Translations under genes and position numbers: made by a program
Notes under the pieces: generated by a model
The model's input: the letters and a program-made list of their open reading frames with translations, nothing else
Told to the model about the DNA's origin: nothing
The model's database searches: none
Origin: an uncultured Bacteroidales bacterium
Lineage (GTDB): Bacteria; Bacteroidota; Bacteroidia; Bacteroidales; Paludibacteraceae
Assembly (NCBI GenBank): GCA_900317885.1
Contig: ONIM01000021.1
Span: 1-44,699, forward strand
DNA length: 44,699 nt
Reading direction: 5' to 3'
Shown: positions 1,892 to 43,636 of the stretch, piece by piece
Position numbering within the stretch: the first letter of the stretch is position 1
How the letters are laid out: each line of letters starts with the position of its first letter

Positions 1892-3075
1892 TTCTTCTTG
1901 TTATCCACGAGGTCTTTGATACCATAGAGGTCGAAGCCCAGCGTGAAGCGCATGGTCTGATCAAGCGGGTTAGAAGCAGCCAGACCTACGCAGTAGGATA
2001 CATCGAGCGTTACGATCGAGAGGTGGAAACCGGCACCGAAGGTGAGGTAGTTACGGTTACCTTTGTAGTAGTTCTCGTAGCTATAACCCATACGAGCGAA
2101 GAACTGCTTGTTATAGCTATACTCGATACCTGCACCCCAGCGAACTTCGTTGAACTCCTCTTTGGCACCGCCCGGAGCGTCAGCAAAGCTCTGGAACCAT
2201 CCCTTAGCAGGGTTGATAGCCGAGTAAGCGTCCTGGCTGTACTTGCCGGTCGTCTTATCATCTGCATACTTGGAGTAGCGGGAAGGAACAAGCATCTTGT
2301 TTGCCTCTACGTTGAAGGTCAGGAAGTTGTACTTGTCGCACGGCAACTCGTAGCCTACACCGATATTCATGGATGCCGGGATGAAGTTACTGTGGTCATC
2401 GCTATACGCCATCTTACCACCGAGGTTCTTGAGGCTGAAACCGAGCGAGAAATTAGAGGTACCCATCGGCAGGTCAATCGGTTGTTTGTAGTACAGGGCG
2501 ATATCCGCAGCCATCGTCCAAGCGGGATGCATCTCACCGGCAATAGAGGTGGAGGTGTTCACTCCGTTGTTGAGGTCCGAATAGAGGAACCGCACCGCTA
2601 CAGACATCGATACGTACTCATGCAGCTTACGGAAATAACTGAGGTCGAGTGCCCACTCGTTCGGACGTACCGTGATTGCTGTCGGCGTAGCACTTCCGTC
2701 CGTGAGGGTAACGTCACCCATCGAGAAATACGTGAAACTGGCACCAATACCGCCACCGAGGTCACCGAAGTTATAGAAACCGGCGAGGTATGCCAGGTCG
2801 ATATCTCCTACCAACTTACGCAACCATGGCGTGTAGTTAGCCGTAATACCACCCTTGGAGTACATATAAGCGTACTTGGCGGGGTTCCAGTACTGGGAGT
2901 TAAAGTCGGCTTCTGTAGCTACACCTACGTCACCCAAACCGGCAGCACGTGCGTCCGGAGCAATGGACAGCGAAGGCATAGATGTAATCAGCGGGTTCAT
3001 TGTGTCGTCTGCTGTAGCTGCGCTCATCGAAGCGGCAAAAAGCAGAGCAACCAGAGAAATACTTAGTTTTTTCAT
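1888..3075 (-). CDS. porV: Type IX secretion outer-membrane protein PorV
   Basis: 395 residues with a clear signal peptide (MKKLSISLVALLFAASMSAATA). PorV (LptO) is a FadL-like outer-membrane beta-barrel that carries T9SS cargo from the translocon to the sortase PorU and the attachment complex. The mature N-terminus NPLITSMPSLSIAPDARAAGLGDVGVATEADFNSQYWNP is the PorV signature, with a glycine-rich hatch followed by alternating amphipathic strands and a barrel-closing end. It lies 96 bases after porU, an arrangement common in Bacteroidales. No TAnnTTTG box is visible in that gap, so it is likely expressed with porU. Its stop overlaps the ispF start. Confidence 0.95.
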   Translation of the reverse strand: MKKLSISLVALLFAASMSAATADDTMNPLITSMPSLSIAPDARAAGLGDVGVATEADFNSQYWNPAKYAYMYSKGGITANYTPWLRKLVGDIDLAYLAGFYNFGDLGGGIGASFTYFSMGDVTLTDGSATPTAITVRPNEWALDLSYFRKLHEYVSMSVAVRFLYSDLNNGVNTSTSIAGEMHPAWTMAADIALYYKQPIDLPMGTSNFSLGFSLKNLGGKMAYSDDHSNFIPASMNIGVGYELPCDKYNFLTFNVEANKMLVPSRYSKYADDKTTGKYSQDAYSAINPAKGWFQSFADAPGGAKEEFNEVRWGAGIEYSYNKQFFARMGYSYENYYKGNRNYLTFGAGFHLSIVTLDVSYCVGLAASNPLDQTMRFTLGFDLYGIKDLVDNKKK

Positions 3076-6100: not shown

Positions 6101-6519
6101 AGAGGCGAACCGATATTATCCGTCAGGAAGTAGTATCCGTATTCGGAGTAGGGGTTGCGGGTGTGGGCGAAGCGGGATTTGGACGCGTCGTAAGCCCAGC
6201 TGATCGGTCCCTGAACGTAGAATAGCACGAAGTCGCTCCCTACAAATACCGGTACTTGCGGCAGGTCGTCGATATTCGGTTTGGAGAAATCCTGGGTCTT
6301 CATAGCACCTCCGTACCCGAACACGCGTACTTGCGAGGGGTTGCTGATACCGGCGGCCTGGAGGTCGCTGAACGTCATTTTGCAGACACCGCTCTCGCTC
6401 ACGCGGATCTTCACCCATTTGCCGGATGCCAGAACGGAATGACCGGCGTAGGTATGAATACCCGCTGCAGCCGACAGCCACAACGATAATAGCAGTACTA
6501 TGGATAGAATTTTTCTCAT
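3172..6519 (-). CDS. porU: Type IX secretion system sortase PorU
   Basis: About 1,115 residues. PorU is a gingipain-like (peptidase C25) surface sortase that removes the C-terminal sorting domain of T9SS cargo and attaches the cargo to anionic lipopolysaccharide. A signal peptide (MRKILSIVLLLSLWLSAAAG) opens the protein. The C25 catalytic region has FNYSGHGGYNA (histidine) and FWLFATCSFARYDG (cysteine). The C-terminus carries beta-rich domains and ends with a sorting-domain-like strand pattern (LYLYNINGQMLYS ... IYTVKI). A start at 6531 is possible; 6519 was preferred because it makes an ATGA overlap with the upstream gene and starts at the signal peptide. porV follows after 96 bases. Confidence 0.95.
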   Translation of the reverse strand: MRKILSIVLLLSLWLSAAAGIHTYAGHSVLASGKWVKIRVSESGVCKMTFSDLQAAGISNPSQVRVFGYGGAMKTQDFSKPNIDDLPQVPVFVGSDFVLFYVQGPISWAYDASKSRFAHTRNPYSEYGYYFLTDNIGSPLAPTAGEAISGTPTDVTTYPAFQVHDKDSLNLIDRSGVSGGGRTFYGEQFENGMKRTFTFSLPNAEDVTAYITVAAYASVSSQFTATMGSASKSVTLNAYKDNYDFGQTGTISLSATMPASATQQVQLRFQSSQTSALGWLDYIEVVGQRPLRMNGSYMTVRTLANRNSSVPVRFHLTNASASTQIWDITDKAAILRMPTTLSGSEITWVGTQADGVHEYIAVNTAGSGFVAAEVVGTVLNQDLHQLNNIDYVIICPNGYESEATRLAQAHQKKEGITWAVVTDKQVYNEFSSGTPDATAYRWLMKMLYDRANNGIGQKPRWLLLLGHGTFDNRKLLPNSGEALLLTYQAENSSYEVNAYTTDDYFGFLDDNEGVTDASGKIDIGIGRLPVVSVAEAQSTIDKLIAYMNNPQGGKWKNQLAYLADDGEHGTHTDTAEQSAEQTRVNNPDFVVHKVYLDAYPQEVNASGESYPLAKNRIHNLLRNGVLYFNYSGHGGYNAITNESILNQHDIELMSNKNQAFWLFATCSFARYDGSKRCAAETAVLNPKGGAIAVLAATRTVYAPGNTRLSRSVTAELFKHSNTFHYEATLGEALAAGKNALGYEENKLSYVLFGDPAMRLNYPTDYYVETVTDIDTLHALSVQQVQGRIVDEDNQTVSDFNGKVDITVYDKMQVITTRDNDSSPEEAKELKYNDYPGTLFTGSAAVREGEFSYSFMVPKDIRYNYGNGRIVYYAQTTDEGELAEAVGHYEDFTIGGTGDILSADTIGPEMEIYLNNKAFQDGGKTYSTPRFYADLYDEHGINTAGAGIGHDLMMIVDNDPKQIYILNDYFTAANDSYTTGQISYLMGALQDGPHSLTFRAWDLLNNSTTKSLNFVVEAGLDPSIYSVVSYPNPVHQSGVLNLIVNYDQPDEQLSTELYLYNINGQMLYSHTQENPDQVSINLANLNLHPGVFIYTVKIKSENSKYSVTSGKIIVTK

Positions 6520-7082
6520 TTGATCTTGCAATATAGTTTCTCTTCTCCGTTTATCTCCGTGCGGATGATTTCTTCTTTGTGTACAAGCCGCGGGGCGCGC
6601 TTAAGTTGAATATAAATCAGGTCTCCTTGCCGGATGGTCATCAGTTTGCCGGCTTCGGCGATTGCCTCTTCGGGCGAGAGCACGAGTTCTTCCTTCAGAT
6701 ACTCCCTTCCCTTCAGGGAGGGGGTGGGGGTAGGCTCATACTCTCCTATCGCGAGCGAGTAGTCAAAGGCAAGGGCTTTGGTCCAGGGTTCTCCTGCTTG
6801 CTGCGCTTCGCGCGCCCGGTCCATTGCAATGAAATCCGCTCCGGGAGCTACGGCGTCGTAGTAACGGCTCGCGAACTTCGGCGCTATCCCTTTACCCAAC
6901 TTGCTCACGCGCAGGACGACGCACTCCGTCACGCCTAACTCGCTCGTACTATCGGGAATGAACATCGGCTTACGGCCGTTCAGGAGACAACTGTCTCCTT
7001 TGAGAACCATCATCCATTGTTCGTCCGTCTTTCGACTTTCGACTTTTGACTTTTGTCTATATATGAAGCCGATTATTTTCAT
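6516..7082 (-). CDS. Degenerate fumarylacetoacetate hydrolase-family protein
   Basis: 188 residues, close to the short Bacteroidales members of the FAH (2-keto-4-pentenoate hydratase/YcgM) family. The start MKII, the block KPMFIPDS, the SRYYDAVAPGADF segment and the PW...AFDYS block line up with the family. However, the usual YExE metal-binding pair appears as VTEC, so at least two carboxylate ligands seem lost. Two stretches look inserted: residues about 9-18 (QKSKVESRK) come from a 7-bp repeat array and residues about 116-127 (PTPTPSLKGRE) from a C/G-rich repeat. A promoter at 7099-7129 fixes the start. It is first in the operon, overlapping porU by 4 bases. It may be non-catalytic or decaying. 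Confidence 0.7.
   Translation of the reverse strand: MKIIGFIYRQKSKVESRKTDEQWMMVLKGDSCLLNGRKPMFIPDSTSELGVTECVVLRVSKLGKGIAPKFASRYYDAVAPGADFIAMDRAREAQQAGEPWTKALAFDYSLAIGEYEPTPTPSLKGREYLKEELVLSPEEAIAEAGKLMTIRQGDLIYIQLKRAPRLVHKEEIIRTEINGEEKLYCKIK
6702..6735. repeat. C/G-rich in-frame repeat (LKGRE type) in FAH-like gene
   Basis: The plus strand reads CTCCCTTCCCTTCAGGGAG followed by G-runs and TAGGCTCATA. On the coding strand it encodes PTPTPSLKGREY. A close relative, including the flanking TAGGCT(C/T)ATA, lies inside the acyl-ACP thioesterase gene at 41108-41143 and encodes the same PxPxxxLKGRE pattern in an unrelated enzyme. Confidence 0.65.
7029..7056. repeat. In-frame heptanucleotide array in FAH-like gene
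   Basis: Four 7-bp units on the plus strand: CTTTCGA, CTTTCGA, CTTTTGA, CTTTTGT. Read on the coding strand they encode the segment around KSKVES. The same units recur in mutY (37582-37616) and the S9 peptidase gene (43296-43316). Confidence 0.7.
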
Positions 7083-11966: not shown

Positions 11967-11997
11967 TTGCGTATCTCAAAATATTTTTGTATCTTTG
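11967..11997 (+). promoter_or_regulatory. Promoter of M20 peptidase operon
   Basis: -33 TTG at 11967-11969, a 20-bp spacer and -7 TATCTTTG at 11990-11997. Divergent from the lptD promoter, with about 110 bp between them. It places the true start of the peptidase at the ATG at 12015. Confidence 0.75.
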
Positions 11998-12014
11998 CAG
12001 CAAATTTTAAATCT

Positions 12015-13463
12015 ATGACCATTCAGGAATATATTTCCGCTCATCGCGAGCGATTCATGGAAGAGTGGGGAAGTCTCATTCGGATTCCTTCTGTTAGTTG
12101 TCAGGCCGAGCACAAAGCCGATATGCGGCGTTGTGCGGAGAGGTGGCGCGAACTCCTGTTAGAAGCGGGATGCCAGAAGGCGGAGATATTGGAGCCCCAG
12201 CCCCCTAAAGGGGGAGAAGTAGCGGGTAACCCCTTCGTTTACGCTGAATATATCTGTCAGCGAAGCGGTCTGTCAGGCGGAGCCGGTCTGTGCTCTGTTA
12301 GCGAAGCGGTCTCTGTTCCTACCGTTTTGGTCTATGCGCATTATGATGTGATGCCGGTGGAGCCGGTGGAGGAATGGCGGTCTGATCCCTGGGAGCCGTG
12401 TATCCGTGAGGGGCGTCTGTATGCCCGCGGAGCGGACGATGACAAGGGTCAGGCGATGATTCAGGCGAAGGCGTTTGAATACATGGTCAAGAGCGGTCAG
12501 ATGGGATGTAACGTCAAGTTCATTTTCGAGGGCGAGGAAGAGATTGGTTCGCCGTCATTAGAGGCGTTTTTAGAGGCGCATAAGGAGCTGCTGAAGGCGG
12601 ATATTATCTTGGTTTCCGACACGTCGATGATCGGCAAAGAGACGCCTTCTATCACAACGGGTCTGCGGGGACTGGCGTACTGGCAGATAGAGGTGGACGG
12701 ACCGAATCGGGATCTGCATTCCGGCCATTTCGGCGGGGCGGTTAAGAATCCTATTAATGCGCTCTGCGAGATGCTCTCGAAGGTGGTGGATGAGGACGGA
12801 AGGATCACTATCCCGGGCTTTTACGATGACGTATTGCCGATTCCCGAAGAGGAGCGCGCGATGATCGCTCAGATTCCGTTTGACCAAGCGAAATACAATC
12901 AGGCGATTGATGTAGATGATGTCTTCGGCGAGAAGGGGTATTCCACCTTGGAGCGCAATAGCTGCCGTCCGTCGTTTGATATCTGCGGTATCTGGGGCGG
13001 TTATACGGGCGAGGGCAGCAAGACGGTGCTGCCGAGCAAGGCGTTTGCGAAAGTATCCTGCCGCCTGGTAGCGAACCAGGACCACGAGAAGATCTCGCGC
13101 GCGTTTATCGAATATATGGAGTCGCTCAAGCCTCAAGGCGTGCGGATCAGGGTTACGCCGATGCACGGCGGTCAGGGATATGTCTGCCCGATAGATATTC
13201 CTGCTTATAAAGCGGCAGAGAAAGGCTTTGAGAAAGCGTTCGGAATCCGTCCGTTAGCTGCCCGCCGCGGGGGATCGATACCAATTATTGCGGCTTTTGA
13301 GCAGATTCTCGGGTGCAAGACCATCCTCATGGGATTCGGTCTGGAGCAGAACGCTATCCACTCGCCTAACGAGAGTATGGATCTGGAGGTGTGGGAGAAA
13401 GGAATCATTGCCGTTTCGGAATTTTATAAAACCCTTATAAAACCCTTACTAAAGTCTTACTGA
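12015..13463 (+). CDS. M20-family zinc dipeptidase
   Basis: About 482 residues. M20 dipeptidases hydrolyse small peptides with two zinc ions in the cytoplasm. Ligand motifs are VYAHYDVMP (His), RGADDDKGQ (bridging Asp), EGEEEIGSP (catalytic and ligand Glu), ILVSDTSM (Asp) and NAIHSPNESM (His); the dimerisation/lid domain lies between, with DLHSGHFGGAVKNP. Three repeat-derived segments are embedded: residues about 61-68 (PQPPKGGE), about 80-101 (the CQRSGLSGG region, between two strands near the active site), and the last 13 residues, from an 11-bp array. These lie in loops or at the end, so activity may be kept. First gene of an operon with the aminotransferase and DUF2520 protein. The ATG at 12015 follows the promoter. 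Confidence 0.9.
   Translation: MTIQEYISAHRERFMEEWGSLIRIPSVSCQAEHKADMRRCAERWRELLLEAGCQKAEILEPQPPKGGEVAGNPFVYAEYICQRSGLSGGAGLCSVSEAVSVPTVLVYAHYDVMPVEPVEEWRSDPWEPCIREGRLYARGADDDKGQAMIQAKAFEYMVKSGQMGCNVKFIFEGEEEIGSPSLEAFLEAHKELLKADIILVSDTSMIGKETPSITTGLRGLAYWQIEVDGPNRDLHSGHFGGAVKNPINALCEMLSKVVDEDGRITIPGFYDDVLPIPEEERAMIAQIPFDQAKYNQAIDVDDVFGEKGYSTLERNSCRPSFDICGIWGGYTGEGSKTVLPSKAFAKVSCRLVANQDHEKISRAFIEYMESLKPQGVRIRVTPMHGGQGYVCPIDIPAYKAAEKGFEKAFGIRPLAARRGGSIPIIAAFEQILGCKTILMGFGLEQNAIHSPNESMDLEVWEKGIIAVSEFYKTLIKPLLKSY
12195..12216. repeat. Palindromic C/G repeat in M20 gene (PPKGG)
   Basis: CCCCCTAAAGGGGG at 12201-12214, preceded by GCCCCA, is a near-perfect hairpin with a 4-base loop. It is read in frame as PQPPKGGE. 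A sister copy (CCCCCTGAAGGGGG) is in the DUF2520 gene at 14777-14790. Confidence 0.7.
12253..12317. repeat. About 60-bp interspersed repeat in M20 gene
   Basis: The region holds repeated subunits CTGTCAGCGAAGCGGT, then a CTGTCAGGCGGAGCCGGT variant, then CTGTTAGCGAAGCGGT. The whole 60-bp unit aligns with 36991-37052 (minus strand) inside mutY with only a few substitutions and one-base gaps. It is in frame in both genes but read partly in different frames. Confidence 0.7.
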
Positions 13464-34700: not shown

Positions 34701-36825
34701 AATCGTCAAGGTAGGCGCACATGGATTAGCGCTGAATAATACGATTATCTCCGACAATGCAGCGGTAGAGCCGATGGATGTGACCGAGGCCGTTCCCGGT
34801 GCAGTAGTGAATAATATTGCTCTCAACTCTAAACTCTCATCTCTCAACTGTTTCGCTCCGTATTTCACGGACCGGACGCCTTATAACTTGCCGGATTATC
34901 TGACGGAAGACAAGCCGCTTTCCTACCAGCTCCATGAGCATAGCGCATATATCCATGCCGGCACGGACGACCAAGCGTTGGGGGCTGTCTATGCCTCCTA
35001 CATAGCCGATAGTACCATCGCTTTCCGCTACGACCGCGACGTGCTCGGTAACCCGAGAAAGATCGGTACAGGTGTCGATATGGGTGCGTTAGAGACCTGG
35101 AAGGTAGAGAAGAAAGGCTACCGTGAGGTCACCGCCCGGACCAATAAGGTAGGATCGGAGAGTACGGTAGATGAGAATAAGTTCTACGCTTTCCTCGAGA
35201 ACTACGGCGGTAACGACTACCCGCATCCGGGATCGGTGGTTTACCTCATGGATAGCGCTGCTATGAGTATGCAGTATGAGGCCCTTCCGGACTTCGTGGA
35301 TCTGAAGACCGGTCTCACGCCTTTTGCCCTCCGTCCGGGATATATGCTCCTCAAGTCCGGCGCTTCGTTCTACGGCAACGGCCATACCGTACAGATGAAC
35401 TACCTGGCGGCGGAGAAACGGTTTAAGAACCAGCGTTACTCGATGACCTCCTTCCCGTTCAACTACTCGGCGGCGGATATCACCGTCTCCGGCTACGATG
35501 CAGGGAAAGACTCGTTAATCCTTCTGCCTTCGCCTTTCACCTTCAATACCTACCAGTATGCAGGCGCAGCGCGTTCGGCGAAGGATTATGTCTTCCAGCC
35601 TACTAACTCCTCGCTATGGCACCCTGTCGATACGCTCAATCGTACCGCTACCGACGGATACCTCATGGATTTCGGTGCTGTCACCGATACCGTCCTCCGT
35701 TTCAATGCCTTCGCCCCCAACCCCGGTGAGTATATTTATACCGAGGATGGCGATGACAAGACGGTTAAACTCACCCAGTACGATCACCGCCAAGGCGGTA
35801 CGGGCTCGTCGCTGGACTTCACGACCCAGGAGAACATGGGATGGAATATGAAGGGTCTGCCGTGGCTCGTGTCCTACTACCGTACCGATACGATTATATG
35901 GGCGGGTAACTTCGTAAGACAGATGTATATCCCGCATGTCATCTATCAGATGGACGGAAGTATGAAATACGGTATCGCGGGCGATCAGGCTTATACATCC
36001 CGTTCGTGGGATAGGGGTACGACCGTCTCGATGGGTAGTGCTTTCCTTACCCAGACGGCTACGCAGAGCGATCGCGAGACGGTGGTCTTCCATATCCCGT
36101 ACTACGACCAGAATAAGAAAGTGGCTCGTCCGGTGATAGACCTCTCCGCGTCCACGCCGCAGGTAGCTCATGCACCGATGCGAAAAGCCGCTCTCGGTAA
36201 CCGTACCGTGACGGAGGTAGCCGATATGCTGACCCTCATGCCGGATTCCGCTGCATCCAAACGGGTACAGTATGCTTACGGCCGGGACGGTATCAAGTGG
36301 AATGCTAACGACAGCCTGCCGCAGATGTATGTACTGGATAACAAGGGTCTGTCCCGTATCTCGCTGCTCGGCGCAGCGCCGATAGAGGTGGATATACCTG
36401 TGGGCGTGAAGGTGCCGGCGAACTACGACGGCTATAACTTCACCTTCCGCCTGCCGTCCAAGGAGGCGTTTGAGAACTATCCGTCCGTATGGCTGATTGA
36501 CTACGAGAAGAAGAGCTATATCAACCTCAAGGATGAGGACTACGAGGTACCGCTCGCTACCGGCGAATATACCAAGCGCTTTGCGATCCGTATCGGCGCC
36601 CTGCCGCGTAACGCTACTTCGACTCAGAAGAAATATACCGTCTATATGTATCGCGGTACGCTCTATATCCGCGGCTTGCAGACCGGCGACCGGATTACCG
36701 TCTATTCGCCGTCAGGACAACTCGTCCAGACAGCTGTCGCCGACGGATACGAGTACTCCTCGCCGATGCTCTACCAGACCTCGTATATCGTACGGGTCAA
36801 CGACGAGACGCATAAAGTGCTTTAG
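31705..36825 (+). CDS. Giant beta-helix adhesin, C-terminal part with T9SS sorting domain
   Basis: About 1,700 residues in the -1 frame relative to the upstream part, overlapping it at 31705-31753. It has no signal peptide and no credible start (only a GTG in the overlap), and continues the same protein: EVES/VYKAHEASDS joins without loss. Two more beta-helix modules begin near 32614 (DGLTWETPTTDLQTAIDIL) and 34096 (RVLYVQPTLVDAGDGSSWEHPFG). A beta-rich region follows, then the final 70 or so residues (TLYIRGLQTGDRITVYSPSG to SYIVRVNDETHKVL), a type A T9SS C-terminal sorting domain that PorU would cleave. Unless frameshifting occurs, the N-terminal product would lack its anchor. Stop shares TTAG with the convergent mutY. 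Confidence 0.85.
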   Translation: MYKAHEASDSVFHPDVIAKLMELRAQGDKLEGLYFCSYRKTYGPTGMKPTPEGYLLTRDEQRAFVDPRQKPVKIQMEHGFPVEDYDNLFTYVHGNNNTLINPINTATDGPNFKQPTFIAGIDGYMQNADWLLARMNLTTDQGWGHLKQTVTRGVGYFLTRYTGKTHYETFELALDAANIAVGEDTCTAWSVLPVRGLPIATFDDVQDPPGAIYNWYSKRYGAYMSDINDPLPIKDQYYMAYSRTTSDEEVSGNMDRISKHPKTGETDVYIDVGIYEYQYVQLDIKGQEIDTMWVATKVKDPIRHDGLTWETPTTDLQTAIDILMSSHNSHDKYVCFLGDDEGGTFSPSNVIDNRRAFIITSNTLEPLLPDSAEADHDYGVNSLTFLGGYSFDVKDAPRDPQAHPTIIEMPNIGTAAQRNQLFIVEDMTRQMVQANWQGEYTSRDSVVIPIVFDGMTFINPYSTKDPSSDVGGYNNQGGLMSKKGGAAIYYRWQRRYEGHDNVYSPDFNKALHPDSALIDGMKTVLPKLTLSNCIFMDNGARDGVDHNERSAAVRIDHGGGSSLIVNSLFHSNAGAPVYARTYDILEEENDLASVPNDVVIINSTSALNDGHIRLEGANSEVHNSLIWLDDLDNDTTIQLQMGASDQWDKTTNSERGGIDGRMTNNAVWGCFKGAGAGSYDNDNLVTENRNLTNGPGFVLPFVAASTSEQRRERSFRLNPSLITHEKADTTLYRNRVFFRVYPDTCAETHNKYWRRSNGFKSTFITTLANDSDLAAKPRLSGNGMERGAYECLATLQRVLYVQPTLVDAGDGSSWEHPFGQGQLQNAIDAAAVYNYLNQNAPNREDKKAYVFVKGSYDSRDHTDLQARDGVFVYGSLPTTFNDTAAIDPDSKQFTNAECQRFVNYVRASSTGVASPNATPTRINSIHVEGDDFETGFLLDGFMITNPDATLHASPVILNNEMTAIRNCLITDNKVTDVPVVDVTRGLLYNNLIYGDSASAIVKVGAHGLALNNTIISDNAAVEPMDVTEAVPGAVVNNIALNSKLSSLNCFAPYFTDRTPYNLPDYLTEDKPLSYQLHEHSAYIHAGTDDQALGAVYASYIADSTIAFRYDRDVLGNPRKIGTGVDMGALETWKVEKKGYREVTARTNKVGSESTVDENKFYAFLENYGGNDYPHPGSVVYLMDSAAMSMQYEALPDFVDLKTGLTPFALRPGYMLLKSGASFYGNGHTVQMNYLAAEKRFKNQRYSMTSFPFNYSAADITVSGYDAGKDSLILLPSPFTFNTYQYAGAARSAKDYVFQPTNSSLWHPVDTLNRTATDGYLMDFGAVTDTVLRFNAFAPNPGEYIYTEDGDDKTVKLTQYDHRQGGTGSSLDFTTQENMGWNMKGLPWLVSYYRTDTIIWAGNFVRQMYIPHVIYQMDGSMKYGIAGDQAYTSRSWDRGTTVSMGSAFLTQTATQSDRETVVFHIPYYDQNKKVARPVIDLSASTPQVAHAPMRKAALGNRTVTEVADMLTLMPDSAASKRVQYAYGRDGIKWNANDSLPQMYVLDNKGLSRISLLGAAPIEVDIPVGVKVPANYDGYNFTFRLPSKEAFENYPSVWLIDYEKKSYINLKDEDYEVPLATGEYTKRFAIRIGALPRNATSTQKKYTVYMYRGTLYIRGLQTGDRITVYSPSGQLVQTAVADGYEYSSPMLYQTSYIVRVNDETHKVL

Positions 36826-37898
36826 TGAATGAGGCTGATGGCCTTTAAGGTCAATCGGGATAGGGCGTAGTTATCCAACTCGTCCCATCGGATAGCAAGA
36901 GTGCCGGGTATCTCCGGCATTTCTTGTACTCTATGTATAAGGAAACGCGCATGTATGCGCTGGTGCGAGAGCACGTGCGAGATTTCGCAGACCGGCTTCG
37001 CCTGACAGAGCAAAGACCACTCCGTTGACAGACCGCTTTCGCTGACAGACTCCTCGCAGGGAAACTCATAGAGGTGATACCAGATGTCCTTCGGGTTCTC
37101 GCGGCGTTGAATAAGGGTAATTGGGGAGAGGTTACCGGTTACGGGGGCAAGGTAGATATGGTACGTGAACCATCTGTCGCGGACTTTGGGACGAGGTTTT
37201 CGTATAGGAAGCAAGTCGGCCGTGCCGTGCGCATGAGCCGCGCAGAAATCCTTCAGCGGACAGGTTTCGCATGCGTCGCCTAATACCGGCGTGCAGTAGA
37301 GCGCACCAAACTCCATGATTGCGGAGTTGAAAAGTCTAGGATGATCCTTATCCAATAGATCTTCGATTCGCTGATGGAAGAGCTTTTTGCCTGCTGTGGT
37401 GTCAAACGGCTCGTCGATATCCATGAGCCGTGCTACCACCCTATAGACGTTTCCGTCCATCGCCGGATAGGGAAGATTGTACGCAAACGAAGCGATTGCT
37501 CCGGCGGTATAATCGCCTATACCGGGTAGCGAACGGATCTCCTCAAAAGCCTTTGGGAAAAAATAATCTTGCTGTGCACCGCTTTCGACTTTCGACTTTT
37601 GACTTTCTACTATCATCTGCGCCGCCTTATGCAGATTCCGCGCGCGGCTGTAGTAACCCAAACCCTGCCACTCGCGCAAAACTTCCGCTTCATCCGCCTC
37701 AGACAGTGCTTTGACAGTAGGCCAATGGTCCAGGAATCGTCGGTAATAATCCAACCCTTGGGCCACTCTGGTCTGCTGTAAGATCACCTCGCTTAACCAT
37801 ATTGCATACGGATCCTCCGTCTCCCTCCAAGGGAGAATGCGCTTGGAAGACTCATACCATGCGTATAAATGGCTATATATGAGTGTTTTGTCCTGCAT
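36822..37898 (-). CDS. mutY: A/G-specific adenine DNA glycosylase
   Basis: About 358 residues. MutY removes adenine mispaired with 8-oxoguanine. WLSEVILQQTR carries the catalytic Glu37, LPGIGDYTAGAI is the helix-hairpin-helix with the catalytic aspartate, and CTPVLGDACETCPLKDFC holds the four cluster cysteines, with seven rather than the usual six residues between the first two. The C-terminal NUDIX-like domain recognises 8-oxoG (ISHVLSHQRIHARF). Two repeat-derived segments interrupt it: residues about 95-106 (VESQKSKVES) and about 283-303 (SVSESGLSTEW onwards), the latter in the NUDIX-like domain. ATG 37898 was preferred over a GTG at 37916. Divergent from the HU gene. Confidence 0.93.
   Translation of the reverse strand: MQDKTLIYSHLYAWYESSKRILPWRETEDPYAIWLSEVILQQTRVAQGLDYYRRFLDHWPTVKALSEADEAEVLREWQGLGYYSRARNLHKAAQMIVESQKSKVESGAQQDYFFPKAFEEIRSLPGIGDYTAGAIASFAYNLPYPAMDGNVYRVVARLMDIDEPFDTTAGKKLFHQRIEDLLDKDHPRLFNSAIMEFGALYCTPVLGDACETCPLKDFCAAHAHGTADLLPIRKPRPKVRDRWFTYHIYLAPVTGNLSPITLIQRRENPKDIWYHLYEFPCEESVSESGLSTEWSLLCQAKPVCEISHVLSHQRIHARFLIHRVQEMPEIPGTLAIRWDELDNYALSRLTLKAISLIH
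36991..37052. repeat. About 60-bp interspersed repeat in mutY
   Basis: On the coding strand it begins TCTGTCAGCGAAAGCGGTCT and contains a second CTGTCAGGCGAAGCCGGT subunit. It aligns over its length with 12253-12317 in the M20 gene. It is in frame in the NUDIX-like domain of mutY, in a loop before the conserved HVLSHQR strand. Confidence 0.7.
37582..37616. repeat. In-frame heptanucleotide array in mutY
   Basis: Five 7-bp units on the plus strand: CTTTCGA, CTTTCGA, CTTTTGA, CTTTCTA, CTATCAT. The coding strand reads VESQKSKVES. Units two to four match the array in the S9 gene exactly (43296-43316). Confidence 0.75.
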
Positions 37899-37937
37899 TT
37901 TGACCGTTAAAATCACCTAAATGACTGATTTTGAGCA

Positions 37938-40157: not shown

Positions 40158-40644
40158 ATTCTTCAATATCTTCTACTTCGGCTCCGGGGATGTACCGTTT
40201 GAGTACTCGCGCTACGCCGGTAGTCCAGGAGTTGATGGAGTCGCTGTCCATCTGCAGGCCGCTGATCATGTGTACTACTTGGTCGATCGGCATGCCATAC
40301 CGTAACACGCCGGAGATCAACCTCGCGTAGTTCCAAAACTCGCGGTCGAACTTATAACTCAATCCCTCTACGGTTGTCTTAAAGCCGCGGGTGTTGACAA
40401 ACTGGAAGTCGTAACGCTTGGTGCCGTCTTCTTTGACTACTTTGATGATCTTGCCTTTCGTCACGGATTTGGGTAATGCGATACCCATCTCGTCATCCGC
40501 CAGACCGGTGAAGATCTCATACGGTCTGCCGTCCTTCAGCCCGACGAACGCTATCCATTTGTCTTTCTGGTTCTGGAATCGCACTACGTCGCATTCCAAC
40601 TCTGCGGGGCGCTTCAAGAGCGTTGTGTCCTGTTGTATATCCAT
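40156..40644 (-). CDS. Orphan C-terminal domain of B12-dependent ribonucleotide reductase
   Basis: 162 residues that match the region close to the C-terminus of adenosylcobalamin-dependent (class II, NrdJ) ribonucleotide reductase: RPAELECDVVRFQNQKDKWIAFVGLKDGRPYEIFTGLADDE, then LPKSVTKGKIIK, YDFQFVNTRGFKTTVEGLS and ARLISGVLRYGMPIDQVVHMISGLQ. In full-length enzymes this follows the catalytic barrel and precedes a cysteine-rich redox tail. Here both the barrel and the tail are missing, and only one cysteine remains. It has its own ATG placed exactly at the end of a 7-bp repeat array. It could be a decayed remnant, or a split accessory subunit like NrdJb. No other nrd gene is in the window. Confidence 0.75.
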   Translation of the reverse strand: MDIQQDTTLLKRPAELECDVVRFQNQKDKWIAFVGLKDGRPYEIFTGLADDEMGIALPKSVTKGKIIKVVKEDGTKRYDFQFVNTRGFKTTVEGLSYKFDREFWNYARLISGVLRYGMPIDQVVHMISGLQMDSDSINSWTTGVARVLKRYIPGAEVEDIEE

Positions 40645-40692
40645 AAATCCTAAATCTTAAATCCTAAACCCTAAACCCTAAATCCTAAAAAC
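40644..40692. repeat. TTTAGGG-type heptanucleotide array
   Basis: Seven 7-bp units on the plus strand: TAAATCC, TAAATCT, TAAATCC, TAAACCC, TAAACCC, TAAATCC, TAAAAAC. The array includes the thioesterase stop codon and ends at the ATG of the next gene, so it makes up the whole intergenic space. Confidence 0.85.
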
Positions 40693-41428: not shown

Positions 41429-41457
41429 CTCTAAACTCTAAAACTCTAAACTCTAAA
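41429..41457. repeat. CTCTAAA heptanucleotide array
   Basis: Four units: CTCTAAA, CTCTAAAA (one base longer), CTCTAAA, CTCTAAA. They fill exactly the gap between the stop of the S9 peptidase gene and the start of the thioesterase gene. Confidence 0.85.
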
Positions 41458-43584
41458 CTATTCCTTCAACCATCTATCCAGCCATCCTCTGAACTTGCGT
41501 TGCCAGAGAATACCATTCTGGGGTTTGAGCACCCAGTGGTTCTCGTCCGGGAAGATCAGTAACTCTGCAGGCACGCCGCGCATCTTGGCCGCATCAAAGG
41601 CTGCCATGGCTTGGTTGGCCAGAATGCGGTAGTCTTTCTCGCCGTGGATACAGAGGATCGGCGTGTCCCATTTATCCACGAACTTATGCGGGCTGTTTTC
41701 AAACGTGCGCTGCGCAATCTTATTGTCTTTGTCCCAATAAGCGCCGCCCATATCCCAGTTAGCAAACCATTTCTCTTCGGTCTCGAGGTATTGCATCTCC
41801 AGATTGAAGATTCCGTCATGAGCGATGAATGCCTTGAATCGTCCGTCATGGTGACCGGCAATCCAATAGACGCTGAATCCGCCGAAGGATGCGCCTACGC
41901 AACCCAGATGATCTTTATCGACGTACGGCTCCGTGCAGAACTCATCAATGGCGGTGAAGTAATCCTTCATACACTGGCCTCCGTAGTCGCCGGAGATCTC
42001 TTCGTTCCACTCCTTGCCGAATCCCGGCAGACCGCGGCGGTTGGGTGCAACGATGATATAGTCGCCGGCGGACATCATCATAAAATTCCAGCGGAAGGAC
42101 CAGAATTGGGAAACCGGGCTTTGCGGGCCTCCCTCGCAATAGAGGATCGTCGGGTATTTCTTCGCGGGATCAAAATGCGGCGGGTAGATGATCCACGTCA
42201 GCATATCTTTGCCGTCGGTAGTCTTCTGCCAGCGCGGCACGACGGTGGAACGCTCGATCTGCTCATAAATATTGTCGTTCTCGTGGGTCAACTGCTCTAA
42301 CGCGCCCTCGTTTCGGATGTCGAGGTGGTAGATCTCGTTCGCCTGACGCATCGAGTGACCGAGGATATATGCCTGATAATCCGCTACGTCGCCCAGCCCG
42401 AGATCGTGTTGTCCCTCCGTGAGTTTGGACGTCCAGCCGTCCAAGGTCACGCGGTAGAGTTGTACGGTAGCCTGTTTGCAAGCAGTAAAGACGAGAGACG
42501 TGTCGTCCAGCCACTGGTACTCATCAACGTTGGTGTCCATCGCGCGGCTGAGGAAACGTTTCTCGCCCGTCTCCAGACTCAGCGCCATCAGCCGGTTCTC
42601 GTCGCTCTCATAGCCGTCGCGCTCCATCGACTGCCAGGCGATCCACTTGCCATCCGGCGAATAAGAGGGGTTCGTGTCGTAGCCCTTGTTGTCGGACGTG
42701 ATATTCTTATGCGCACGCGTACGTATATCAAATAGGTATATATCGCTGTTGGTCGAAACGGCATACTCTAAGCCTGTTTTTTTGCGGCAGGTATAGGCAA
42801 TCTCCTCGTTGTTGGGGTTCCACGCCAGCTGCTCGATTCCTCCGAAAGGCTTCATCGGACATTCGAATGCTGTGCCCTCCAGAATATTCACGCATCCGCC
42901 AAGTTTGGCGGATTTCATTCGTTCGCCCTCGCCGTAGTATTCGGTCTGCAGCTCATAGACAAAGGGCTGCGGAGCAGTCTCGGTCCATTCATCCCAGTGT
43001 TTGTACATCAGATCCTCGTGCATGTGACCCGTTGCCAGCGGCAGATCGGGATACTTGTCCGCCGTCGTCTGAACGGTCTTCACCTGCTTCACAAGAATGA
43101 TCTTGTCGCGCATAGGGGAGAGTAGGAAGCCCTCGATGTCCTCTGCGCCGGTTACCTCCACTTCCTCTTTGTCGCGGCGGATATAGAGTTTGCCGCCTTT
43201 GAGGTACGCCAACGCACCGCTGTTGCCGAACCATGCCGGCTCTGAACCTACAAACTCATCTACAATAGTTAATTGCTTTGAGTCCGAAGGACGGTCTTTC
43301 GACTTTTGACTTTCTACTGAATATGGATTCACAATCCGGATCCAGGTCGTACTCCGGTTCTCCTCCACGGAATAATAGCTCACGGTGTACGCGAGCAGAC
43401 CTGTCTCAATGTCGCTCTTCACACTACCGATGCGACCCATCGCCCAAAGTCCTTCCGGAGTCAGACGACCGCCTTCAATCGTAATCTGAGGCTTCGTAAT
43501 GGGAGCTTTGCCTTCTTCTGCTTTTTGGCAACCTGCGCCAACTAACGCCATTAATGCCATACTGATAATTACTAATTTCTTCAT
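41458..43584 (-). CDS. S9 prolyl-oligopeptidase-family lipoprotein (DPP5-like)
   Basis: About 708 residues. The start MKKLVIISMALMALVGAGC gives a lipobox; a longer frame from 43635 overlaps the promoter and was rejected. A beta-propeller with TolB-like repeats (NPSYSPDGKWIAWQSMERDG; LAWNPNNEEIAYTC) precedes the alpha/beta hydrolase domain with GASFGGFSV (serine), HGEKDYRI (aspartate) and DENHWV (histidine). The family removes dipeptides from peptides in the periplasm or at the surface, fitting amino-acid-fermenting Bacteroidales. Residues about 88-97 (VESQKSKDR) come from a 7-bp repeat array, in the first part of the propeller. Promoter at 43605-43636. Followed by the thioesterase after a CTCTAAA array. 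Confidence 0.9.
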   Translation of the reverse strand: MKKLVIISMALMALVGAGCQKAEEGKAPITKPQITIEGGRLTPEGLWAMGRIGSVKSDIETGLLAYTVSYYSVEENRSTTWIRIVNPYSVESQKSKDRPSDSKQLTIVDEFVGSEPAWFGNSGALAYLKGGKLYIRRDKEEVEVTGAEDIEGFLLSPMRDKIILVKQVKTVQTTADKYPDLPLATGHMHEDLMYKHWDEWTETAPQPFVYELQTEYYGEGERMKSAKLGGCVNILEGTAFECPMKPFGGIEQLAWNPNNEEIAYTCRKKTGLEYAVSTNSDIYLFDIRTRAHKNITSDNKGYDTNPSYSPDGKWIAWQSMERDGYESDENRLMALSLETGEKRFLSRAMDTNVDEYQWLDDTSLVFTACKQATVQLYRVTLDGWTSKLTEGQHDLGLGDVADYQAYILGHSMRQANEIYHLDIRNEGALEQLTHENDNIYEQIERSTVVPRWQKTTDGKDMLTWIIYPPHFDPAKKYPTILYCEGGPQSPVSQFWSFRWNFMMMSAGDYIIVAPNRRGLPGFGKEWNEEISGDYGGQCMKDYFTAIDEFCTEPYVDKDHLGCVGASFGGFSVYWIAGHHDGRFKAFIAHDGIFNLEMQYLETEEKWFANWDMGGAYWDKDNKIAQRTFENSPHKFVDKWDTPILCIHGEKDYRILANQAMAAFDAAKMRGVPAELLIFPDENHWVLKPQNGILWQRKFRGWLDRWLKE
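43296..43316. repeat. In-frame heptanucleotide array in S9 gene
   Basis: Three 7-bp units on the plus strand: CTTTCGA, CTTTTGA, CTTTCTA. Identical to three units in mutY. The coding strand reads VESQKSK. Confidence 0.75.
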
Positions 43585-43604
43585 TGTTATTAAGAAAATT
43601 TGTG

Positions 43605-43636
43605 CAAAGGTACAAAAAAATTTGCATATATGCAAA
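43605..43636 (-). promoter_or_regulatory. Promoter of S9 peptidase operon
   Basis: Minus strand: -33 TTTG at 43633-43636, a 20-bp spacer, -7 TACCTTTG at 43605-43612. Its -33 box forms half of the perfect palindrome TTTGCATATATGCAAA. Confidence 0.75.

What the first reader, a model, noticed from the sequence alone, without database searches (positions are those of the whole stretch)
37582..37616. Stop-free 7-bp repeat arrays inserted in frame in three unrelated enzymes
Arrays of CTTTCGA/CTTTTGA/CTTTCTA units occur inside mutY (37582-37616), the FAH-like gene (7029-7056) and the S9 peptidase gene (43296-43316). All three are in the orientation that encodes VESQKSK(VES) and lie at places where family members have no such segment. 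mutY and the S9 gene share 21 identical bases. A 7-bp unit with no stop in any frame on that strand can be tolerated inside genes. This looks like a class of protein-embedded microsatellite that spreads or expands in this genome. Analogous, not known to be related, are the heptanucleotide STRR repeats of cyanobacteria.
Basis: partly seen in the sequence, partly recalled or inferred. Interest (0 to 1): 0.78.

Follow-up and report, generated by a model that had tools for sequence, protein, structure and literature searches.

The report
Seven-base repeats rewriting enzyme loops
In what looks like a rumen bacterium and its relatives, short blocks of a seven-letter DNA repeat sit in frame inside many basic enzymes, and different species carry different repeats at the same spots, as if repetitive DNA kept rewriting small parts of essential proteins.

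Summary
CTTTCGA-type blocks lie in mutY, the FAH-like gene and the S9 peptidase gene, and at 24 further places in this assembly. Of 34 blocks in the DNA I fetched, 30 lie inside open frames, many in core enzymes (MurD, MurF, MurG, Cmk, IleRS, DXS, MutS2); 26 of those 30 read VESRKSK. They are not random-phase microsatellites: 29 of 34 begin at the same base of the unit, the commonest length is 30 bp (four units plus CT), and internal variants recur in the same order at unlinked genes. Period 7 exceeds all other periods in five of six genus samples. Sisters with 93-94% identical protein lack the S9 segment. At 10 of 15 sites compared, by eye, a relative carries a different repeat at the same spot. 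In IleRS the block replaces a variable native segment, and identical blocks occur in species whose four-fold sites match only about half the time. Best explanation: near-neutral blocks copied between sites as short patches, kept where frame and loop tolerate them; the enzymology is unknown. Nearest known: heptamer repeats of cyanobacteria and Xanthomonas, and Rickettsia palindromic elements. New variant of a known kind.

The parts
37582..37611 (-). 30-bp CTTTCGA-type block (units C,C,T,A + CT on the + strand) inside mutY, coding IVESQKSKVES
   Evidence: loop variable in 29 other orthologues; gap in MutY structures
36822..37916 (-). mutY (A/G-specific adenine glycosylase): HhH-GPD and NUDIX_4 domains
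36989..37050 (-). second dispersed repeat in the same mutY: GGTCTGTCA-type spacers alternating with small stem-loops
   Evidence: (matches of about 45-63 bp at 82-90% elsewhere in the genus)
7029..7058 (-). 30-bp block (CTTTCGA x2, CTTTTGA, CTTTTGTCT) near the start of the FAH-like gene, coding RQKSKVESRK
6516..7082 (-). FAH-like gene (FAA_hydrolase domain)
43296..43318 (-). 23-bp block (C,T,A + CT) inside the S9 peptidase gene; part of a 14-aa extra segment SVESQKSKDRPSDS absent from the two closest sisters, followed by GTCCTTCGGAC
41458..43635 (-). S9 family peptidase gene
40644..40689 (.). heptamer array between two genes, unit CCTAAAT/CCTAAAC
41429..41459 (.). heptamer array between two genes, unit CTCTAAA
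21231..21259 (.). heptamer array between two genes, unit GTGTATA
12253..12291 (+). spacer plus stem-loop repeat (TCTGTCAGGCGAAGCCGG) in ORF 11967-13463; G000-specific extra residues in this ORF

Best explanation
The arrays are small, non-autonomous, near-neutral repeat blocks, most often (CTTTCGA)4CT = 30 bp. They are copied between sites in the genome, and perhaps between species, as pre-formed short patches: a stretch of the target of roughly 30-100 bp is replaced or inserted, with no target-site duplication seen. Copies that keep the frame and fall in a permissive loop survive purifying selection; the orientation reading VESRKSK is hydrophilic and survives most often. Different lineages of the genus have different prevailing heptamers, so the same loops are rewritten repeatedly. 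Shown: preferred ends, shared internal variants, in-frame placement, species-by-species turnover, short patch borders. Inferred: copying by microhomology-guided repair, replication template switching or uptake-type illegitimate recombination; near-neutrality; that the sites are surface loops.
For: Dispersal: 43 overlapping hits at 26 places in G000. Ends: 29 of 34 blocks start in the same phase, 14 of 34 are exactly 30 bp, 19 of 34 have a length of 7n+2; the base before a phase-0 block is T (22 of 29) or G (7 of 29). Copying of formed blocks: mutY and L030 share unit order C-C-T-A and S9 has C-T-A; C-C-T-C recurs in L019 and L170; the CTTTTGA variant is the second unit from the right end in 8 of its 13 occurrences. 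In frame: 30 of 34 inside open frames with positive codon score, 26 of the 30 in the VESRKSK orientation (3e-5 for an even split); the two flanks, scored without the block, point to the same strand and frame in 24 of 34 (one of these, L167:969-998, is non-coding). Hosts: 19 of 20 open frames submitted match a known family. Turnover: at 15 sites compared a different heptamer or hairpin repeat sits at the same spot in at least one relative at 10, by eye; ambiguous at 2 (radical-SAM protein, MurG); not seen at 3 (FAH, Cmk, RluA-family). Patch size: MurD of G000 is 0.88-0.94 identical to G193/G169 at 60-300 bp left of the block and 0.91-0.93 at 60-300 bp right of it, but 0.33 in the 15 bp before it and 0.73 in the 15 bp after it; G304, 0.71-0.82 in its near flanks, has 0.80 in those 15 bp and 0.97 in the block. 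Homogeneity: (CTTTCAA)4 in IleRS is 30/30 identical in all pairs of G269, G326, G247 and G301, whose four-fold sites are 45-54% identical. Prevailing unit: CTTTCGA:CTTTCAA overlapping hits are G000 28:2, G169 22:4, G187 22:1, G201 9:0, G319 24:14 where IleRS holds CTTTCGA-type units, and G269 3:8, G247 2:4, G217 2:10, G326 0:10, G301 1:14, G310 0:2 where it holds CTTTCAA: 11 of 11 agree.
Against: No copying enzyme or intermediate was found; patch copying is inferred from pattern alone. Some heptamers look locally born: IleRS of G313 and G290 has TACACNN units beside a TACACGC-like native stretch. The right end is looser than the left: 15 of 34 lengths are not 7n+2. In the 60-kb G193 sample periods 8, 11 and 15 exceed period 7. 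G319 is mixed, and the 11 species are not independent (G326 and G217 are near twins). The IleRS block of G201 has decayed (26/30 to G000). Conservation of IleRS blocks could partly reflect selection on the peptide, although synonymous sites are conserved too. The block shared by MurD of G000 and G304 but absent from closer sisters could be ancestral, with replacement in the sisters. 'In frame' is partly by construction, since a frame with a stop in the block is not counted; the flank test (24 of 34) is the independent one. Most of the 34 blocks were fetched because they match the pattern. All genomes are single assemblies per species; variation within a species was not seen.
Confidence: 0.5

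Rival explanations
1. Local slippage only: each array grew in place from a chance 7-9 bp match, with a strong 7-bp step, and selection kept the in-frame ones.
For: Period 7 dominates with many unrelated units. TACACNN units in IleRS of G313 and G290 resemble adjacent codons.
Against: The same unit, with the same phase at the left end and recurring internal variants, sits in more than 20 different genes; slippage would give varied units and random phase.
Confidence: 0.25
2. A true mobile element with recognised ends and its own (unknown) recombinase. The ends GT|CTTTCGAC...CGACT and the partly self-complementary TCGA units could be the recognised structure.
For: Narrow left flank (T or G, no C; A is excluded by construction) and preferred length. 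In single-strand folds of the four-unit block, units pair as two small hairpins.
Against: The folds are weak (z about -1.6). The unit CTTTCAA has the same four-unit form without the TCGA self-complementarity (my reading). Y1/REP-type transposases do not follow the arrays: of 8 genomes chosen for checking, all with CTTTCGA arrays, 3 (G169, G187, G191) have no match and the other 5 only weak ones of at most 25.3 bits; 42 of 121 genus genomes have a match. Other recombinase families were not tested. No target duplication was seen in the sites compared.
Confidence: 0.15
3. The blocks are functional switches (phase variation) or regulatory sequences.
For: A 7-bp unit would shift frame if copy number changed by one; non-coding copies of related units exist.
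Against: Hosts include enzymes that are normally essential, where an off state would be lethal or costly (established knowledge of these enzymes); flank frames agree in 24 of 34; 30 bp is the commonest length.
Confidence: 0.05
4. Assembly artefact or chance similarity in hypervariable loops.
For: Metagenome assemblies; loops of these proteins vary anyway.
Against: Assemblies under different project names carry them; 0 expected in 100 shuffles; 18 of 30 genus IleRS segments have best lag 7 against 2 of 28 in other genera.
Confidence: 0.02

Closest known systems
Heptameric tandem repeats (STRR) of cyanobacteria (recalled) and the GGGAATC/GGGGAYT heptamers of Xanthomonas and Nostoc (PMC4692102, abstract and passages seen)
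   Same: 7-bp unit, many dispersed sites, a preference for four units; heptamers over-represented in many bacteria according to that paper
   Different: Those are mainly non-coding (intragenic 11% and 7% in the two Xanthomonas), and the paper links the four-unit preference to G-quadruplexes. Here the units have no G-tracts, most CTTTCGA-family blocks in my set are inside genes, and turnover between species at the same site is seen.
TAACTGA direct repeats of Beggiatoaceae, Cyanobacteria and some Bacteroidetes (PMC4679880, abstract and two sections read)
   Same: Heptamer repeats scattered through a genome, some inside open frames; reported in five Bacteroidetes, including Paludibacter
   Different: In the main genome studied, mostly within several nucleotides upstream of start codons; in-gene cases mainly at protein ends; one unit only.
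Rickettsia palindromic elements, RPE (review PMC2229807, passages seen; original papers not held)
   Same: Small repeats in frame in conserved proteins (19 reading frames in the review), tolerated by the product
   Different: RPEs are 105-146 bp palindromes with terminal inverted repeats; these are 23-55 bp direct heptamers, exchanged for other repeats between species.
PARCEL coding repeats (PMC2996958, abstract read)
   Same: Intragenic coding repeats thought to be shuffled within and between genomes
   Different: 25-residue domains in open frames without assigned function, some membrane-targeted; not blocks of about 8-19 residues in core enzymes.
Small dispersed repeats of cyanobacteria (Elhai 2008; cited in PMC2884548, of which I saw passages; paper itself not held)
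   Same: Very small repeats that might be mobile; some associated with heptamer arrays (recalled)
   Different: Not compared directly here.

Membership tests
Heptameric STRR / heptamer simple sequence repeats | Tandem 7-bp units, dispersed over the genome, in excess of neighbouring periods | tested here: met
   8.5 period-7 arrays per 100 kb in G000 (8.1 without the window) against 0-1.6 for periods 5, 6, 8, 9, 10. In the small G193 sample periods 8, 11 and 15 were higher than 7.
Heptameric STRR / heptamer simple sequence repeats | Mainly intergenic | tested here: not met
   CTTTCGA family: 30 of 34 in open frames (mostly pattern-selected). All units together in genus DNA: 37 in genes, 26 at gene edges, 42 intergenic or unclear, of 105
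Rickettsia palindromic element (RPE) | In-frame residence in conserved protein genes | tested here: met
Rickettsia palindromic element (RPE) | 105-146 bp palindrome with terminal inverted repeats | tested here: not met
   direct repeats of 23-55 bp
REP / RAYT (Y1 transposase-associated palindromes) | Y1 transposase in genomes that carry the repeat | tested here: not met
   none in G169, G187, G191, which carry many arrays; weak matches only in 5 others; G000 has one of 26 bits with a stop inside
Phase-variation contingency locus | Copy number varies between cells and switches the frame | not testable with these tools
   one assembly per species; no reads
Transposable element | Target-site duplication | tested here: inconclusive
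   filled and empty sites differ by replaced patches and no duplication was seen by eye, but orthologues are only about 70-94% identical, so short duplications could be blurred

The most novel reading that the evidence does not exclude
The genus has an active loop-rewriting process: a dedicated or co-opted copying machinery spreads 30-bp heptamer blocks with defined ends through core genes and keeps them homogeneous within a species, so that essential enzymes carry a species-specific repeat peptide in the same loops.
Probability: 0.2. Interest if true: 0.85.

Novelty: new variant of a known kind. Interest (0 to 1): 0.66.

Why it matters
Heptamer repeats have been reported as over-represented in bacteria, and the role of the best-studied ones was still unexplained in the 2015 paper I saw (PMC4692102). 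Here the same protein sites in many species act as recorders: filled, empty and refilled states can be read at known positions, which makes the origin, copying and loss of heptamer blocks testable. It also suggests repetitive DNA as a main source of in-frame length change in core proteins: of 6 G000-specific extra segments of 4 or more residues found in the 20 window genes compared with two sisters, 3 are these arrays and two more look like other repeat families. Four-unit blocks without G-tracts also speak against G-quadruplexes as the general reason for a four-unit preference.

Tried and rejected
Y1/REP transposase as mobiliser: matches in 42 of 121 genus genomes, none in G169, G187 and G191 and only weak ones in 5 others. 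Hairpin formation as the reason for four units: weak folds, and CTTTCAA blocks have the same form. Exact 12-mer counts as a way to list repeat families: only four groups surfaced. The 'read backwards' control of the pattern search is no control for CTTTCAA, because the reversed pattern is the same cyclic unit. Stop-freedom as a special property: close to a necessity. A structure prediction was not run: the tool's stated list of admissible relatives does not name loci from the genome search, and a single-sequence model seemed of little use. Literature: searches (all ten allowed) listed no paper that I recognised as describing in-frame heptamer blocks in Bacteroidales; that library lacks most subscription papers. 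Rows dropped: 2 of 30 IleRS loci from other genera lacked anchors; 5 of 34 blocks not starting in phase 0 were left out of the flank counts; 7 of 27 window genes had no match in the sister stretches and were left out; L256 was left out. The census set of G000 includes the window itself (5 of its 26 arrays). The second set of host sites was compared with at most 5 relatives each.

Full report
Observation. They are read in the host genes as VESQKSK-type peptides. The 18-bp core pattern occurs 5 times in the window and in none of 100 shuffles; mutY and S9 share 23 identical bases. The hosts are a MutY (HhH-GPD, NUDIX_4), a protein with the FAA_hydrolase domain and an S9 peptidase.

Genome-wide. 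The window is contig C28 of a 2.12-Mb, 89-contig assembly, 88.8% complete. The three-unit pattern CTTTYGA gives 43 overlapping hits at 26 places in it. In a family sample the exact CTTTCGA three-unit pattern is found in 49 of 300 genomes, all but three (G083, G107, G153) in the window's own genus, where counts run from 0 to 60. The listed ones included rumen Bacteroidales and Paludibacteraceae assemblies, Flavobacterium species, a Hydrococcus cyanobacterium and others. Named stretches that match the G000 DNA I held include SRR5976181_bin.53 (91% over 3.1 kb), UBA2712 (91% over 0.7 kb) and Paludibacteraceae RGIG3254 (79% over 2.5 kb). I therefore take the organism for a rumen member of the Paludibacteraceae; no call names it.

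Period. In stretches not chosen for arrays (though one of them is the window itself), period-7 arrays occur at 8.5 per 100 kb in G000: 26 in 304,699 bases, or 21 in 260,000 without the window. Five other sets from the genus range from 3.3 (2 arrays in 60,000 bases of G193) to 16.9. In 20 other genera of the family the figure is 2.5 (7 in 279,525 bases). In G000, periods 5, 6, 8, 9 and 10 have 0 to 1.6 and period 11 has 3.9. Period 7 is the highest in five of the six genus sets; in the G193 set periods 8 (5.0), 11 (10.0) and 15 (5.0) exceed it. Units are many and unrelated (GTGTATA, ACAATGT, GATTGGA, CTGAAAA and others). Of 105 such arrays in 951,964 bases of genus DNA, my codon-score classifier puts 37 inside genes, 26 at gene edges and 42 in intergenic or unclear DNA.

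Anatomy of the CTTTCGA family. Among 34 blocks in the G000 DNA I held, mostly fetched by the pattern itself, 29 begin at the same base of the unit, 14 are exactly 30 bp, (CTTTCGA)4CT or a variant of it, and 19 have a length of 7n+2. In the 29, the preceding base is T in 22 and G in 7, and the base before that is G in 18. The CTTTTGA variant sits second from the right end in 8 of its 13 occurrences, and whole strings recur: C-C-T-A in mutY and L030, C-T-A in S9, C-C-T-C in L019 and L170. Copying of formed blocks gives this; slippage at each site does not.

Hosts and frame. For 30 of the 34, the block lies inside an open frame with positive codon score. Three more are non-coding and one (L022) appears to lie just upstream of a start codon. 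Two pairs share a gene (L013, L179). The best-scoring frame of the left flank and of the right flank, taken without the block, agree in strand and frame in 24 of 34, one of them non-coding. 26 of the 30 read VESRKSK and 4 read LSTFDFR. Profile searches match MiaB (a fragment), MurF-Alr, Cmk, MurD, IleRS (a fragment), DXS, an RluA-family enzyme, a 2-oxoacid oxidoreductase subunit, MurG and MutS2 (the models I name for MiaB, MurF-Alr, IleRS and RluA score below NCBI's curated cut-off). They also match a GH130, a transporter permease, a DHH protein, DUF58, an ATP-grasp protein, a GHL10 protein, a radical-SAM protein and an M24 peptidase, and the altronate/galactarate dehydratase behind the L022 block. 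The L027 frame at 2524-3021 matched nothing in Pfam; I read it as RecF-like by eye. The remaining hosts were not searched.

Same sites in relatives. S9: the two closest sisters, 93-94% identical in protein, have NPF-ENM where G000 has NPYSVESQKSKDRPSDSKQ; of nine, G304 has a different insert (PTPGPSRKGG) and G305 one extra residue. FAH: ten residues absent from G193 and G275; G304 has a shorter similar segment. MutY: in 29 other orthologues the loop before FP..FEEIRSLPGIG carries nothing or little, the same kind of block, or other repeats such as ECTMNNVQCTKG (row L204: EQCTMNNVQCTKGSTIC); solved MutY structures have a 10-residue gap there. IleRS, 30 genus sequences: four species have CTTTCGA-type four-unit blocks, five have perfect (CTTTCAA)4, and others have interrupted or mixed blocks or CAACTAT, ATTACGA or TACACNN heptamers; three have a CCCTCCC-type hairpin and eight a shorter segment that I take as native to the genus. 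In 28 other genera the segment is 54-57 nt without periodicity. So in IleRS the block replaces a variable stretch and is not a pure insertion. Best lag is 7 in 18 of 30 genus sequences and 2 of 28 others. DXS, MurD, MurF, DUF58, the M24 peptidase, the oxidoreductase and MiaB show the same exchange of repeat types. Cmk, FAH and the RluA-family gene do not, and the radical-SAM protein and MurG are ambiguous. All this is by eye.

Prevailing unit. In the 11 species whose IleRS holds CTTTCGA-type or CTTTCAA-type units at this site, the unit in IleRS is also the commoner one genome-wide: CTTTCGA:CTTTCAA is 28:2, 22:4, 22:1, 9:0, 24:14 in G000, G169, G187, G201, G319 and 3:8, 2:4, 2:10, 0:10, 1:14, 0:2 in G269, G247, G217, G326, G301, G310. 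G179, whose IleRS block is mixed, is not placed in either group.

Homogeneity and patch size. (CTTTCAA)4 in IleRS is 30/30 identical in all pairs of G269, G326, G247 and G301, whose four-fold degenerate sites are 45-54% identical; G217 is a near twin of G326. G000 and G169 are 30/30 at 65%. Against this, G201 has decayed (26/30 to G000). In MurD, G000 is 88-94% identical to its two sisters at 60-300 bp left of the block and 91-93% at the same distance right of it, but 33% in the 15 bp before it, and they lack the block. G304, 71-82% identical in its near flanks, has the block at 97%. In IleRS, G193 differs from G000 over at most about 105 bp around the site (bins of 0.73, 0.53, 0.63, 0.40) between flanks of 0.93 and 0.96. 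Only a short patch changed.

Mechanism. What is shown is a population of short blocks with a fixed left end and preferred length, dispersed, in frame, exchanged at the same sites between species, with short patch borders and no target duplication that I could see. What I infer is that repair- or replication-based copying of short patches moves them, that most out-of-frame or misplaced copies are lost, and that survivors are close to neutral. I put 0.5 on this whole statement; pure local slippage remains possible for other units.

Known or new. Over-representation of heptameric repeats in bacteria, and a four-unit preference in Xanthomonas and Nostoc, are in print (PMC4692102, abstract and passages). 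So are TAACTGA heptamers, mostly before start codons (PMC4679880, abstract and two sections). In-frame Rickettsia elements in conserved proteins are in print as larger palindromes (PMC2229807, passages). In ten searches of one open library I saw no account of heptamer blocks inside core enzymes of Bacteroidales, nor of their exchange at fixed sites (listings). I file it as a new variant of a known kind.

Noticed in passing
window 36989-37050 and 12253-12291; L176, L184, L185: A second dispersed family: GGTCTGTCA spacers alternating with small stem-loops of varying stem (GGCGAAGCC, GCGAAGC, GCCCGAAGGGC). 7 spacer-insert-spacer matches in 305 kb of G000 DNA, 5 of them with a stem of 2 or more; tandem versions stand in MurF of G269 and DXS of G304.
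   Followed up: partly
IleRS of G317, G298, G211 (L361, L376, L368); DUF58 of G269 and G275; window ORFs 11967-13463 and 6516-7082: A third group of CCCTCCC...GGGAGGG-like hairpins coding PxPSLKGGE-like peptides, in frame, in part at the same sites that hold heptamers elsewhere.
   Followed up: partly
L172 (RluA-family gene) and many places in G193, G247, G269, G304: ATTGACA heptamers inside the gene, with many further matches in sister genomes.
   Followed up: no
L167:969-998, L176:15235-15264, L180:1176-1219: Three non-coding CTTTCTA/CTTTCGA blocks are all followed by AAAAATCTNNGATTTTNNTTGCATA, a hairpin plus promoter-like stretch.
   Followed up: no
G193 synteny set and other genus stretches: Period 11 is also raised in the genus (2.4-10 per 100 kb against 0.7 in other genera), and periods 8, 9 and 15 in some sets.
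   Followed up: no
MiaB of G247, L013, L027, L180: Heptamer blocks joined to or interrupted by a small GAGCG...CGCGGT-like hairpin, as if one repeat had entered another.
   Followed up: no
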